Positions 18,795 to 23,010 of a DNA stretch of 64,000 nt are shown piece after piece. Each line of letters opens with the position of its first letter. Position 1 is the stretch's first letter. The notes beneath the pieces are model-generated. The model was given only the letters and a program-made list of their open reading frames with translations. It did not search any database and was not told the origin of the DNA. The stretch comes from Ralstonia sp. NFACC01 (lineage in GTDB: Bacteria; Pseudomonadota; Gammaproteobacteria; Burkholderiales; Burkholderiaceae). The position numbers were made by a program, and so were the translations under genes. The DNA lies in assembly GCF_900115545.1 (NCBI RefSeq), contig NZ_FOWV01000009.1, forward strand, positions 124,001 through 188,000. Reading direction: 5' to 3'.

Positions 18795-19451
18795 ATGAGC
18801 ACGCCCGCCCTCGCTGCCGCTTCCGCTGCTGCTTCCTCTGCGGCACCTGCAACCCAGTCCATCGCGCCGCTGCGTGATTTCGTGACCGCGCTGTCGCGCC
18901 TGCTGGATCAGCAGCCGACCGAAGCCGAGATCCTCTCGCGCGCCGGCGCCCTGCTCGGCGCGCTGGTCGCCCGCGACGACTGGCTGCCTGCTGAATACGC
19001 GCAGCCGCACCCCGAACACTTCCAGCAGTTCCTGCTGCATGCCGATTCCGGCGAGCGCTTTTCCATCGTCAGCTTTGTCTGGGGCCCGGGCCAGCGCACA
19101 CCCATTCACGACCACACCACGTGGGGTCTGATCGGCATGCTGCGCGGCGCTGAATACTCGCAGCCGTTCAAGCTCGACGCGCAAGGCAAACCGCAACCCG
19201 ACGGCCCCGCCATCCGCCTGGAGCCGGGCGCTGTAGAACACGTCTCGCCGCGCGTGGGGGACATCCACCGCGTGCACAACGCCTTTGACGATCGCACGTC
19301 GATCAGCATCCACGTCTACGGCGGCAACATCGGCGGCATCCACCGCTCCGTCTATACGGAAGACGGCGAGCGCAAGCCTTTCGTCTCCGGCTATTCGAAT
19401 ACCCATCTGCCCAATCTCTGGGACCGCTCCAAGGACACGCCTGCATCATGA
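18795..19451 (+). CDS. Cysteine dioxygenase-family thiol dioxygenase
   Basis: A 218-residue cupin. The iron-binding histidines lie in PIHDHTTWG and in the later HRVHNAFDD strand. The family adds O2 to cysteine or 3-mercaptopropionate to give the sulfinate. It lacks an obvious eukaryote-like crosslink cysteine. An Ala-rich stretch at residues 4-20 precedes the fold. Its stop overlaps the rhodanese start by four bases (ATGA), so the two are coupled and the sulfinate or its sulfur is likely handed to sulfurtransferase chemistry. Confidence 0.88.
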   Translation: MSTPALAAASAAASSAAPATQSIAPLRDFVTALSRLLDQQPTEAEILSRAGALLGALVARDDWLPAEYAQPHPEHFQQFLLHADSGERFSIVSFVWGPGQRTPIHDHTTWGLIGMLRGAEYSQPFKLDAQGKPQPDGPAIRLEPGAVEHVSPRVGDIHRVHNAFDDRTSISIHVYGGNIGGIHRSVYTEDGERKPFVSGYSNTHLPNLWDRSKDTPAS

Positions 19452-21088
19452 GCACCACCATCGACGCCATCGAATCGCCGGTCGCTGCACCGCTGGCCGA
19501 AACCCATGTCCCCGCGCTCACGTATGCCGAGGTGCGTGCCGCGCTGCTGTCCCGCAAGGAGATCGCGCTGATCGACGTACGCGAAGAAGACCCGTACGCG
19601 CAAGCGCATCCGCTGTGGGCAGCCAACCTATCGCTCTCCCGGCTAGAGCTGGAAGCGTGGTCGCGCATTCCGCGCCGCGATACGTTGATCGTGCTGTACG
19701 GCGTGCACGACGGCGTGGACCTTGCTCCGCGCGCGGCGGCCAAGCTGGCTGAACTGGGCTACACGCGCGTGTACCTGCTCGAAGGCGGCCTCGATGGCTG
19801 GCGCGCTGCCGGTGGCGAAGTCTTCCAGGACGTGAACGTGCCCAGCAAGGCCTTTGGCGAATACGTGGAGGCGCACCGCCACACGCCCTCGTTCAGCGCG
19901 CAGGAGGTCAAAGCGCTGCTCGATGCCAAGCGCGACGTGGTCATCGTCGACGCACGCCGCTATGAAGAGTTTCAGACCATGAGCATCCCCACGGCGACGA
20001 GCGTGCCGGGCGCAGAGCTGGTGTTGCGCATCCGCGAGCTGGCGCCGGACCCGAGCACGCAGGTCATCGTTAATTGCGCAGGCCGCACGCGCAGCATCAT
20101 CGGCACGCAATCGCTCGTGAATGCCGGCATTCCCAACCCGGTGGCGGCACTGCGCAACGGCACCATCGGCTGGCTGCTGGCCGATCAGGTGCTGGACCAT
20201 GGCGCCAGCCGCCGTCACCCGCAGGACGTGTCTGCCGAAACGCGCGCGCAGGCCCAGGCCGATGCACGCGCCGTGGCCGAACGCGCCAACGTGCCGCGCA
20301 TTGCGCTGGCTGAGGTTGCCAAACTCGAGACACCGGACCGCACGGTCTACAAGCTCGACGTACGCACGCCCGAGGAATATGCCGCCGGCCACCTGCCCGG
20401 CTTTGCCAGCGCGCCCGGCGGCCAGCTCGTGCAGGAAACCGACCACACGGCTGCCGTGCGCGGCGCCCGTATCGTCCTGGCCGATGACGACGGCGTGCGC
20501 GCCGACATGTCCGCCTCGTGGCTCGCACAGATGGGCTGGGAGGTCTATGTCGTCGATCCGGTCGACGCCAGCGAGCGCAGCGTCACTGGCACGGGGCAGA
20601 CGCCCGCTCCACAACCTCCGGCCGTGCGCACGGTCGACGCCCGCGCCCTGGCCGGCTGGCTGGAAGCGGGGGACACCGCCGTCATCGACGTCACACGAAG
20701 CGCCAACTACGTTGCGCGGCATATTCCGGGGGCGTGGTTTGCCGTGCGCTCAGACTTGCCCGCAGCGCTGGCGCGCATCCCGGCGGCACGCCGCTACGTG
20801 CTCACGTGCGGCTCCAGCCAGCTCGCCCGCTTTGCCGCCGCCGACCTTGCCAAGCTGACGCAGGCCGAGGTGTGGGTGCTCGACGGAGGCACCGCGGCAT
20901 GGGTGGCCGCCGGCCTGGCCGTTGAAACCGGCGAGACCCATCTGGCCTCAGCCCGCATCGACCGCTATCGCCGCCCGTATGAAGGCACGAGCGCCCCGCG
21001 CACCGCGATGCAGGCCTATCTCGACTGGGAGTTCGGTCTGGTGGAGCAGTTGCGGCGCGACGGAACGCACGGGTTCCGGGTCATCTGA
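19448..21088 (+). CDS. Four-domain rhodanese (sulfurtransferase)
   Basis: A 546-residue protein with four rhodanese repeats at roughly residues 20-120, 130-240, 280-380 and 400-505. Repeats 2 and 4 keep an active-site cysteine loop (VNCAGRTR and LTCGSSQL). Repeats 1 and 3 have lost it (VLYGVHDG and LADDDGVR). Each has the DVR/DAR substrate arginine region, for example LIDVREEDPYAQ. The alternation of dead and live domains resembles two fused tandem rhodaneses. It is cytoplasmic by the lack of a signal and is translationally coupled to the thiol dioxygenase. Confidence 0.9.
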   Translation: MSTTIDAIESPVAAPLAETHVPALTYAEVRAALLSRKEIALIDVREEDPYAQAHPLWAANLSLSRLELEAWSRIPRRDTLIVLYGVHDGVDLAPRAAAKLAELGYTRVYLLEGGLDGWRAAGGEVFQDVNVPSKAFGEYVEAHRHTPSFSAQEVKALLDAKRDVVIVDARRYEEFQTMSIPTATSVPGAELVLRIRELAPDPSTQVIVNCAGRTRSIIGTQSLVNAGIPNPVAALRNGTIGWLLADQVLDHGASRRHPQDVSAETRAQAQADARAVAERANVPRIALAEVAKLETPDRTVYKLDVRTPEEYAAGHLPGFASAPGGQLVQETDHTAAVRGARIVLADDDGVRADMSASWLAQMGWEVYVVDPVDASERSVTGTGQTPAPQPPAVRTVDARALAGWLEAGDTAVIDVTRSANYVARHIPGAWFAVRSDLPAALARIPAARRYVLTCGSSQLARFAAADLAKLTQAEVWVLDGGTAAWVAAGLAVETGETHLASARIDRYRRPYEGTSAPRTAMQAYLDWEFGLVEQLRRDGTHGFRVI

Positions 21089-21100
21089 GCGACCGCCCAG

Positions 21101-21369
21101 GTTCGGAACGTCAGGCTTGGCGTTCTGAACTCGACACTTGGGGCTCCAACACTCCACGCTTGAGGTTCCGGACGCCGCGCTTGAGGTTCCGAACTCCACC
21201 GTTGGCGTTCGGAACGTGACCGGTGGCGTTCAGAACCTCGATATCTCGTAGTCCCAACGCCGACATTGAGGTTCTGAACCCCATGCATGGGGTTCCAAAA
21301 CCCCGCACGCCGGGTTCGTAACCCCGAACGTGAGGTCTGGAACCCCGTGATTGGGGTCTCAAACTCCAC
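21101..21369. repeat. Degenerate 21-bp tandem repeat array built on GTTC-N-GAAC palindromes
   Basis: About a dozen 21-22 bp units fill most of the space between the rhodanese and eamA genes. Clear cores: GTTCGGAAC at 21101 and 21207, GTTCTGAAC at 21122 and 21271, GTTCCGAAC at 21186, GTTCAGAAC at 21228. Weaker cores begin at 21143, 21165, 21292, 21314, 21335 and 21356. The second half of each unit ends in CTTGAG, CTTGGC or ATTGGGG. Since 21 is a multiple of three, open frames of 86 and 117 codons run through on the minus strand with a 7-residue period, but no start site supports them. Confidence 0.85.
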
Positions 21370-21483
21370 ATACGCCTCCGCTCACTTGCTTGCTAACGCC
21401 GCTCACAACGAGCGATAACAAAACTCGTTTTGCGCATAAGCCGGCGTTGAGTAGCATCGGGACTTCCTCGCAGAGGTTCCGTC

Positions 21484-22371
21484 ATGTCCCCCTTCATCGC
21501 CCTGTGCCTGCTCATCACCTACGTGGTGTGGGGCACAACGTATCTCGCCATCCGCTTTGCGCTGACCGATCTGCCGCCCTTTCTGATGATGGGCTCGCGA
21601 TTTCTGGCTGCTGCGGTGCTGCTCGCCCCGCTGGTCATCCTGCGACAGCGCAAGCAGCCCGAAGAGCGGCCGACCTTGCGCCAGGTCCGCAACTGTGCAT
21701 TGATCGGCGCGTTCATGCTGGTGGGCGGCATGGGCATGACGGCGGTGGCCGAGCAGACCATCTCGTCGGGTGCCACCACGGTGATGATCGCGTCGATGCC
21801 GCTGTTCTCCACGCTGTGGACGCTGCTGGCCGGCGGCCGCCTGCGTGCCTATGAGATTGGCGCCATCGCGCTGGGCAGCATCGGGATTGCGGTGCTGTTT
21901 CGCGGAGCGGAGTTTCAGGCCAGCACGGTCGGCGTACTGGCGCTGACCACCGCCATTGCGTCATGGTCGTTCGGCTCGCAGCTCTCCAAACGTATCGACA
22001 TGCCCAAGGGCATGATGGCGTTCGTGCTGGAGATGGCCTTTGGCGGTGTAGCGCTCGTGCTGCTCAGCCTGATCACCGGCGAAGCGTGGCCGAAGCACAT
22101 CGGCATGCATGCCGCGCTTGCATGGGGCTACCTCGTGGTGTTCGGCTCGGCCATCGCATTCACGGCTTACATGGCGCTGGTGGAGCGCGTGTCCACCGTC
22201 ATGGCGACAAGCTATGTGTATGTGAACCCACCCATCGCGCTGCTGATGGGCGCCTGGCTGGCCGATGAAGTGGTCGCGCCGCAGACGCTGGGCGCGACGG
22301 GCATCATCCTGGCTGCGGTGGTGGTACTGACGGCCGGGGCTACGCGGGCGGCGCGGCGGGCGGCGGCCTGA
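21484..22371 (+). CDS. EamA/DMT-family transporter (YedA-like)
   Basis: A 295-residue, ten-helix drug/metabolite transporter made of two EamA repeats. The first starts with CLLITYVVWGTTYLAIRFAL; the second includes MMAFVLEMAFGGVALVLL and TSYVYVNPPIALLMGAWLADE. Such carriers export metabolites or amino acids across the inner membrane. AGAGG precedes ATG at 21484. A strong terminator follows at 22395. Confidence 0.9.
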   Translation: MSPFIALCLLITYVVWGTTYLAIRFALTDLPPFLMMGSRFLAAAVLLAPLVILRQRKQPEERPTLRQVRNCALIGAFMLVGGMGMTAVAEQTISSGATTVMIASMPLFSTLWTLLAGGRLRAYEIGAIALGSIGIAVLFRGAEFQASTVGVLALTTAIASWSFGSQLSKRIDMPKGMMAFVLEMAFGGVALVLLSLITGEAWPKHIGMHAALAWGYLVVFGSAIAFTAYMALVERVSTVMATSYVYVNPPIALLMGAWLADEVVAPQTLGATGIILAAVVVLTAGATRAARRAAA

Positions 22372-22394
22372 GGGCCTCCCCGATGGCGCCCAAC

Positions 22395-22424
22395 AAAAAG
22401 CCCGCGCATTGGCGGGCTTTTTCT
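22395..22424. terminator. Rho-independent terminator between eamA and mqsA
   Basis: AAAAAGCCCGC (22395-22405), a six-base loop, then GCGGGCTTTTT. The A-run and T-run make it usable in both directions, serving the convergent eamA and mqsA genes. Confidence 0.92.
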
Positions 22425-22434
22425 TTTGGGGCGA

Positions 22435-22836
22435 TCAAGCCATCCTGATTTCAGCCAGCAGATCGGGGTGGTGGTCGAGGAGCTTCAAGAGTTTCACCAG
22501 CGCCAAAGACGGCTTCGTCTTGCCAGTTTCATAGCGGGAGAACGCATTGACGCCGCCACCAAAAATCTCGGCGGCCTCACGTTGGTCCAGATTGAGTTTG
22601 CGACGCACCGCGGTGATGTAGGCTGGGTCAACGTAGGTCGAATTCACCTGGCGCTGAAAGGCTGACACCAGTTCGCCATATCGGTCGCCCTGCCCACGTT
22701 CGAGCACGATTTCATCGCATGCCGGACAGAAATCTCCCGTCACGGAGGGGATGACAGTGGTCTCGCCTTTATAGGCATACGGCACATCGCGTGTGTCATG
22801 AATCAGCTCGGCGGCACCACAGCTCGGGCACTTCAT
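22435..22836 (-). CDS. mqsA: MqsA-type antitoxin and repressor
   Basis: A 133-residue protein of E. coli MqsA length. The N-terminal zinc domain has CPSC (residues 3-6) and CPAC (about 37-40); the C-terminal HTH reads LDQREAAEIFGGGVNAFSRYETGK. MqsA neutralises MqsR and represses the mqsRA operon through its C-terminal domain. ATG at 22836 lies two bases after the mqsR stop, with AAGGAG inside the end of mqsR. A TTG at 22842 would start two codons earlier and is less likely. Confidence 0.92.
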   Translation of the reverse strand: MKCPSCGAAELIHDTRDVPYAYKGETTVIPSVTGDFCPACDEIVLERGQGDRYGELVSAFQRQVNSTYVDPAYITAVRRKLNLDQREAAEIFGGGVNAFSRYETGKTKPSLALVKLLKLLDHHPDLLAEIRMA

Positions 22837-22838
22837 GT

Positions 22839-23000
22839 TCAAAGCTCCTTGAAGGAAACGATCAGCACGCCATCAACGACGGTCAGCTTCAGGTAGATGT
22901 CTTGGTCGCTCGCCTTGGCGTGATAGACGTCCTGCCACACGCGATGGTCGGCATGCGTCGTCATGCTCTTGTAGAAGCAGCGTGGCGTAGGTTTTTCCAT
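22839..23000 (-). CDS. mqsR: MqsR toxin with in-frame internal deletion (53 residues)
   Basis: The frame ATG at 23000 to TGA at 22839 encodes 53 residues. The first seven (MEKPTPR) match the MqsR N-terminus, and the rest, from FYKSMTTHADH to LIVSFKEL, matches the C-terminal half of the 98-residue toxin. The middle 45 or so residues are missing without loss of frame. The Lys, Gln, Tyr and Lys positions reported as important in E. coli MqsR (in FYKSM, VWQDVY, IYLKL and SFKEL) are all kept. Whether this mini-toxin folds is unknown; it may now only couple translation of mqsA. Confidence 0.85.
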   Translation of the reverse strand: MEKPTPRCFYKSMTTHADHRVWQDVYHAKASDQDIYLKLTVVDGVLIVSFKEL

Positions 23001-23010
23001 GCACGCCAAC

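What the first reader, a model, noticed from the sequence alone, without database searches (positions are those of the whole stretch)
21101..21369. Array of about twelve 21-bp units carrying GTTC-N-GAAC palindromes
The spacing is regular (21 or 22 bp between successive cores), the 9-bp cores are mirror-symmetric with a freely varying centre base, and the rest of each unit is looser. This is the pattern expected if a dimeric protein binds every two helical turns, on one face of the DNA. Palindromes separated by fixed spacing argue against simple slippage. It could be a bank of operators, a chromosome-organising site, or a locus-specific repeat family. A 7-residue-period frame is also open on minus, so a repeat-peptide origin cannot be excluded.
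Basis: partly seen in the sequence, partly recalled or inferred. Interest (0 to 1): 0.8.

Follow-up and report, generated by a model that had tools for sequence, protein, structure and literature searches.

The report
Two-turn-spaced palindrome arrays between bacterial genes
A bacterial chromosome carries about eleven stretches of DNA in which a short mirror-image motif recurs every two turns of the helix, mostly just after genes; the motif is kept between species and similar arrays turn up sporadically in unrelated bacteria, which points to rows of docking sites for an unknown protein.

Summary
The array is real: 13 units (reader: about 12) of GTTC-N-GAAC type at window 21101-21364, nine spacings of 21 bp and three of 22; score 181 against at most 20.1 in 100 simulations. 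It is one of at least eleven arrays in this genome. All 16 searched genomes of the genus (Ralstonia) have them; exact core pairs occur in 0 of 45 relatives outside it. Between species the core changes less than the linkers in 7 of 7 orthologous groups. Linkers do not covary as base pairs, folding does not depend on unit order and 22-bp steps shift any frame. This favours a double-stranded protein site over an RNA or a peptide. Arrays lie mostly at gene 3' ends. Similar arrays occur sporadically in Bacteroidota, Cyanobacteria, Treponema and Acidobacteriota; one reversed control palindrome formed none. REP transposase and phosphorothioate explanations were tested and not supported. Best reading: rows of helically phased dimer sites at gene ends. 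The protein is unidentified and nothing was tested experimentally.

The parts
21095..21370 (.). whole array, 13 units of 21-22 bp, between a rhodanese-repeat gene and an EamA transporter gene
   Evidence: dynamic-programming search, score 193.6; 181.0 with held-out matrix
21101..21109 (.). core 1, exact GTTCNGAAC
21122..21130 (.). core 2, exact
21143..21151 (.). core 3, degenerate; followed by a 22-bp step
21165..21173 (.). core 4, one mismatch
21186..21194 (.). core 5, exact
21207..21215 (.). core 6, exact
21228..21236 (.). core 7, exact; followed by a 22-bp step
21250..21258 (.). core 8, degenerate
21271..21279 (.). core 9, exact
21292..21300 (.). core 10, degenerate; followed by a 22-bp step
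21314..21322 (.). core 11, one mismatch
21335..21343 (.). core 12, degenerate
21356..21364 (.). core 13, degenerate
19448..21088 (+). gene upstream, four rhodanese-like stretches; its stop codon ends 12 bp before the first core (7 bp before the array edge)
   Evidence: ORF; Pfam Rhodanese 1.1e-48; gap
21484..22371 (+). gene downstream, EamA-type transporter; start 114 bp after the array
   Evidence: ORF; Pfam EamA 8.3e-26; gap

Best explanation
The array is one copy of a dispersed family of dyad-site arrays. Each 21-22 bp unit is a site of the form YSRN-GTTC-N-GAAC-NYSR for a two-fold symmetric (dimeric) DNA-binding protein. Units sit exactly two helical turns apart, so all dimers would face one side of the helix and lie shoulder to shoulder, coating about 270 bp of double-stranded DNA. 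Arrays lie in intergenic DNA, mostly at gene 3' ends and between convergent genes, where such a patch could stop or slow RNA polymerase, absorb supercoils or pin the chromosome. Shown by sequence: units, spacing, dyad symmetry, conservation of cores over linkers, dispersal, intergenic position, lack of linker covariation. Inferred: that a protein binds, that it is dimeric, that binding is cooperative, and the role at gene ends. Units are gained and lost in whole 21-bp steps.
For: Matrix over 545 units is symmetric around the centre base; G0 and C8 are each 94 %, the centre is flat. Spacing 450 x 21, 51 x 22, 4 x 23, none of 19/20/24; all 20 exact pairs in this genome at 21 or 22 with 11-40 allowed. 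In-register divergence of orthologous arrays, pairwise sums, 28 of 41 arrays in 7 groups with group B re-oriented: core 0.03-0.14, linker 0.12-0.33, centre 0.21-0.55; core below linker and below centre in 7 of 7 (correcting). Window against 10 of the 15 other genomes at this locus: core below linker in 10 of 10. Linker positions pair no better than shuffles, across the core or across the linker, as expected of half-sites read independently. Of 17 array-bearing intergenic regions (one per locus) 10 are 3'/5', 6 are 3'/3' and 1 is 5'/5', against 20, 2 and 8 of 30 other intergenic regions of at least 250 bp in the same loci; in 7 of 17 the array begins within 20 bp of a stop codon.
Against: No binding protein was identified. 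Core divergence is not below that of the flanking (partly coding) sequence in 3 of 7 groups (W, D, F). At this locus the centre changes no faster than the linkers in the five closest relatives compared. Pairwise sums are not independent, alignments can lock onto cores, and many arrays were found through exact cores. Core positions 1/7 and 3/5 covary within a unit, partly through alternative unit types such as GCTC-N-GAGC and A-tract units, which a single protein would have to tolerate. The intergenic comparison is small, without a significance test, and uses home-made gene calls. One genome lacks a recognisable array at this locus (G001) and two keep short remnants (G005, G007).
Confidence: 0.5

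Rival explanations
1. A REP/BIME-like dispersed palindromic repeat that spreads and decays with little or no function of its own, or serves as a gyrase or other topological site at gene ends.
For: Intergenic, dispersed, palindromic, biased to gene 3' ends. A REP-associated tyrosine transposase (RAYT) gene directly adjoins an array in Treponema L025 and in Flavobacterium L118. A second dispersed hairpin element occurs in 20 of 47 fetched array loci.
Against: Only 1 of 50 fetched RAYT neighbourhoods has an array, and that one is the L025 place again (the RAYT of L118 was not refetched). The single Ralstonia RAYT-like gene is also in 12 of 17 same-family genomes without arrays, and 4 of 12 array-bearing genomes of other groups have no RAYT match. 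Cores are conserved over linkers and many copies are shared at orthologous places.
Confidence: 0.22
2. The array acts as RNA: read through from the upstream gene it folds into a chain of hairpins that protects or ends the mRNA.
For: RNA of the window array folds far better than dinucleotide shuffles, z = -8.2 (+) and -5.2 (-). It starts 7 bp after a stop codon. Against shuffles within unit columns some of 48 arrays are still more stable (mean z -1.10 on +, -0.79 on -; 0 of 60 shuffles reach six arrays on +).
Against: The extra stability follows from the palindromic unit: shuffling whole units changes nothing (mean z +0.12, + strand only). Linker positions show no compensatory pairing. RNA does not require two-turn spacing. 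No terminator-like site was found and no Rfam family reached its cut-off in window 20000-23000.
Confidence: 0.13
3. A relic of ordinary heptamer tandem repeats (3 x 7 = 21) of unknown use, the helical spacing being a coincidence.
For: In 48 arrays of the genus self-similarity peaks at every multiple of 7 (1.25-1.30 at lags 7, 14, 28, 35; 2.1 at 21 and 42) and dips half-way between. Intergenic TAACTGA heptamer repeats are shared by Beggiatoaceae, Cyanobacteria and some Bacteroidetes (PMC4679880, abstract and passages), and intergenic heptamer repeats are called the most abundant class, without known function (PMC6344855, passages).
Against: Only 21 is strong. Linkers are near saturation in G002, G004 and G013 while cores persist. 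51 steps of 22 but none of 20 is not expected of blind slippage; many of the 51 are shared by descent.
Confidence: 0.1
4. It encodes a heptad-repeat peptide on the minus strand.
For: Minus frames are open: 86 and 117 aa.
Against: Three 22-bp steps shift the frame; no gene is called by codon usage in the window array; substitutions follow unit position, not codon position.
Confidence: 0.02

Closest known systems
REP / BIME repetitive extragenic palindromes
   Same: Intergenic, palindromic, dispersed, often at gene ends; clusters of regularly spaced copies occur (PMC2817692 and PMC3733652: abstract starts in listing and, for the second, passages).
   Different: No GTAG or CGTC tag was seen and no regular RAYT partner; unit is a 21-22 bp symmetric dyad without long stem covariation; strict two-turn tandem spacing. 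PMC3733652 has no mention of Ralstonia or GTTC.
TAACTGA heptamer direct repeats of Beggiatoaceae, Cyanobacteria and Bacteroidetes (PMC4679880)
   Same: Intergenic tandem arrays with a sporadic distribution over distant phyla, suggested there to be horizontally spread (abstract).
   Different: Those are 7-bp direct repeats, mostly just before start codons in the main genome; the word 'palindrom' does not occur in that paper. Here 21-22 bp dyad units mostly after genes.
Tandem operator or centromere-like protein-binding arrays (recalled, no call)
   Same: Repeated dimer sites phased with the helix.
   Different: Those are usually tied to one regulated gene or one partition locus; here at least eleven unlinked places per genome, beside unrelated genes.

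Membership tests
REP/BIME with RAYT | dispersed intergenic palindrome | tested here: met
   At least 11 arrays in G000; intergenic
REP/BIME with RAYT | cognate RAYT gene flanked by the repeat | tested here: not met
   1 of 50 fetched RAYT neighbourhoods has an array; two adjacent cases in all, L025 and L118
REP/BIME with RAYT | stem kept by compensatory changes | tested here: not met
   No pairing excess at linker positions
Heptamer tandem repeat | 7-bp unit | tested here: inconclusive
   Secondary 7-bp periodicity 1.25-1.30 against 2.1 at 21
Dimer-site array | dyad-symmetric site with conserved half-sites | tested here: met
   Matrix, orthologue divergence
Dimer-site array | helically phased spacing | tested here: met
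   450 x 21, 51 x 22, 4 x 23, no 19/20/24; 20 of 20 pairs in G000
Dimer-site array | bound by a protein | not testable with these tools
   Needs pull-down or footprinting
Phosphorothioate (Dnd) target sites, GAAC/GTTC (specificity recalled) | dndC in array-bearing genomes | tested here: not met
   Over the cut-off in 3 of 28 array-bearing genomes, 0 of 16 Ralstonia
Structured RNA family | match in Rfam | tested here: not met
   No match at or above a gathering score in window 20000-23000
Repeat-peptide gene | one conserved frame | tested here: not met
   22-bp steps; no gene called in the array
Plasmid or viral element | found on plasmids or viruses | tested here: not met
   No plasmid match to the array region; three three-core stretches in viral contigs, whose printed sequence shows no long degenerate array

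The most novel reading that the evidence does not exclude
A horizontally spread nucleoprotein system of many phyla: an unidentified dimeric protein that assembles on rows of GTTC-N-GAAC sites two turns apart, laid down at gene 3' ends in dozens of places per chromosome in the genomes that carry it and absent from most relatives, acting as a natural transcription-boundary or nucleoid scaffold.
Probability: 0.25. Interest if true: 0.85.

Novelty: new variant of a known kind. Interest (0 to 1): 0.62.

Why it matters
If the arrays are protein-coated patches at gene ends, they are natural, evolutionarily kept counterparts of engineered operator arrays, and would show how some bacteria mark gene boundaries or organise the nucleoid. 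The strict spacing and the orthologous copies with different unit numbers make the idea directly testable: one pull-down with array DNA should name the protein. The sporadic occurrence in unrelated phyla raises the question whether the binding protein, the arrays or both move between lineages.

Tried and rejected
REP transposase partner: looked promising after two adjacent cases (L025, L118), then dropped: 36 of 45 searched genomes have a match, including 12 of 17 same-family genomes without arrays, and 1 of 50 fetched RAYT neighbourhoods holds an array. Phosphorothioation: dndC over cut-off in 3 of 28 genomes. Centre base flipped by inversion: its substitution types resemble those of linkers and flanks. 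Loss of the factor in G005: rejected, since G005 has arrays by the model search although none by exact core pairs. Shared neighbour gene across phyla: clusters from 1272 crude ORFs gave spurious repeat-derived ORFs, a few common families and the RAYT pairs. Specific RNA fold: unit order does not matter. Gene-end position in other phyla: crude ORFs give 19 3'/3', 30 3'/5' and 7 5'/5' of 56 usable non-Ralstonia loci, without a null; loci at edges or inside a long ORF were dropped. MqsA, encoded about 1 kb away, as binder: not tested.

Literature: nine searches listed no paper that I could recognise as describing these arrays; only open-licence PubMed Central papers are searched. Papers: PMC4679880 abstract and passages; PMC3733652 passages; PMC6344855 passages; the others as search listings only.

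Error found on checking: array L178 was aligned in the wrong orientation; one search repeats the comparison with it turned and without it. The result stands (core below linker in 7 of 7 either way); the numbers given here are those.

Full report
What was checked. The window array has 13 units, core starts 21101 to 21356, with nine 21-bp and three 22-bp steps. Six cores are exact and two have one mismatch. Site number alone is at chance; the array score is not (181.0 with a held-out matrix against at most 20.1 in 100 simulations). The strict chain statistic is weaker, 4 and 3 units against 3 and 1.

Where it lies. Between a gene with four rhodanese-like stretches, whose stop codon ends 7 bp before the array edge, and an EamA-type transporter gene starting 114 bp after it, both on +. 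The window is contig C4:124001-188000 of G000. The genus is Ralstonia: G003, reported as same genus, has contigs of the lengths and array positions of records titled Ralstonia sp. UNC404CL21Col.

A dispersed family. A sequence-only model of three units finds matches in 16 of 16 genus genomes, 13 to 103 each, both strands and overlapping hits counted. In G000 they fall into eleven places confirmed by the unit search (eight including the window, three), plus one weak single place on C10; only 150 of 934 first-look candidates were scored, so this is a lower bound. Exact core pairs occur in 15 of 16 genus genomes and 0 of 45 relatives outside, and in the order-level sample G000 was followed by two genomes with one pair each, at spacings 12 and 20 (300 genomes).

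Unit anatomy. Over 545 units the consensus is pyrimidine, G/C, purine, any, then GTTC-N-GAAC, then any, pyrimidine, G/C, purine. Steps are 450 x 21, 51 x 22, 4 x 23, none of 19, 20 or 24, and nine double steps of 42-44; 15 of 41 arrays have 13 units. The search scored 20 and 23 with the same penalty. Some arrays alternate GTTC units with A-tract units such as GCTAAAAGC, or use GCTC-N-GAGC.

Selection. Orthologous arrays at seven loci were aligned (28 of 41 arrays). With L178 turned round, core divergence is 0.125, 0.088, 0.038, 0.109, 0.031, 0.138, 0.083 for groups W, B, C, D, E, F, G, and linker divergence 0.304, 0.306, 0.181, 0.234, 0.115, 0.264, 0.333 (one search had L178 reversed). The centre base diverges more than the core in all seven. 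Against this, core divergence is not below that of the flanks in W, D and F. At the window locus, found through the upstream gene in 16 genomes, 10 of the 15 other genomes were compared: core below linker in 10 of 10; three of these (G003, G012, G015) had also been found through exact cores here. In close relatives the centre is not faster than linkers. The array has at least four recognisable cores (GYTCNGARC) in 13 of 16 genomes, short remnants in G005 and G007, and none in G001.

DNA, RNA or peptide. As RNA the array folds with z -8.2 and -5.2 against dinucleotide shuffles. Against shuffles within unit columns the mean z over 48 arrays is -1.10 and -0.79, with a few arrays beyond all 60 shuffles; whole-unit shuffles on the + strand give +0.12. 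So the stability comes from the palindromic unit and not from a designed fold. Linker positions do not pair above shuffles across the core or across the linker; two core positions covary inside units, partly through alternative unit types. No gene is called in the window array.

Genomic position. One array-bearing intergenic region per locus, 17 usable of 18 (L171 had no right-hand gene): 10 3'/5', 6 3'/3', 1 5'/5'; other intergenic regions of at least 250 bp in the same loci: 20, 2 and 8 of 30. In 7 of 17 the array begins within 20 bp of a stop codon. Neighbour genes are unrelated: rhodanese, short-chain dehydrogenase, PrmB-like methyltransferase, chemotaxis receptor, lactate permease, PelG, UreE, glycogen branching enzyme. 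The sample is small and no test was computed.

Other phyla. Because the search fixes the core, units outside the first three were examined in 81 usable non-Ralstonia loci (loci with fewer than four such units dropped): core less variable than linkers in 64 of 81, centre more variable than linkers in 50 of 81; clear in Acidobacteriota, Treponema, Pedobacter, Kaistella and Tannerella, not in Saccharothrix or Nocardia. Other exact chains in the same array were not excluded. With spacings of 11-40 allowed, 12 of 12 chosen genomes have 2 to 94 pairs against 0 to 4 for the reversed palindrome, and the pairs that were listed are all 21 or 22 apart (the list is partial). Unselected samples show rarity: besides the seed genome, 4 of 246 Bacteroidia and 4 of 99 genomes of the cyanobacterial order have a single pair. 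The control palindrome in six genomes chosen for having it gave 20 pairs at mixed spacings (two at 21, none at 22) and one ordinary identical 23-bp tandem repeat. Common descent across phyla is not shown.

Candidate partners. RAYT genes adjoin two arrays but fail as a general partner. DndC fails. No plasmid match; in viral contigs pairs are isolated and at mixed spacings.

Verdict. A dispersed family of helically phased dyad-site arrays, most simply read as protein docking rows at gene ends. The protein and the effect are unknown.

Noticed in passing
L142 4405-4880, L166 3560-3740 and 4260-4450; CTGAGCGNAGCGAGTT in 20 of 47 fetched array loci: A second dispersed hairpin element of roughly 250 bp often lies beside or on both sides of the arrays; its loop motif is absent from the 64-kb window even with two mismatches, and no Rfam match was listed on the copies in L142 and L166.
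   Followed up: partly
L147 5224-6164 +: Three copies of the C4 antisense RNA family (Rfam RF01695, 56-70 bits) stand next to an array.
   Followed up: no
L162 4013-4420, L146, L175, L165: A-tract units (GCTAAAAGC, GCAAAAAGC, GCTTTTTGC) take the place of GTTC cores, in L162 in strict alternation over most of the array.
   Followed up: partly
48 arrays of the genus: Self-similarity peaks at all multiples of 7 and dips half-way between, as if the 21-bp unit were three heptads.
   Followed up: partly
window 22435-22842 - and 22842-23009 -: An intact mqsA-like antitoxin gene (Pfam MqsA_antitoxin 5.6e-62) next to an mqsR-like open frame that matches only the last half of the toxin profile.
   Followed up: no
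L142 4911-5045: An array lies inside the urease operon, upstream of ureE (Pfam UreE); the upstream gene is taken as ureC because the 5' ureB sRNA family matches inside it on the minus strand.
   Followed up: no
L025 3151-3477 and L118 2827-3582: REP-associated tyrosine transposase genes directly beside arrays in Treponema and Flavobacterium.
   Followed up: yes
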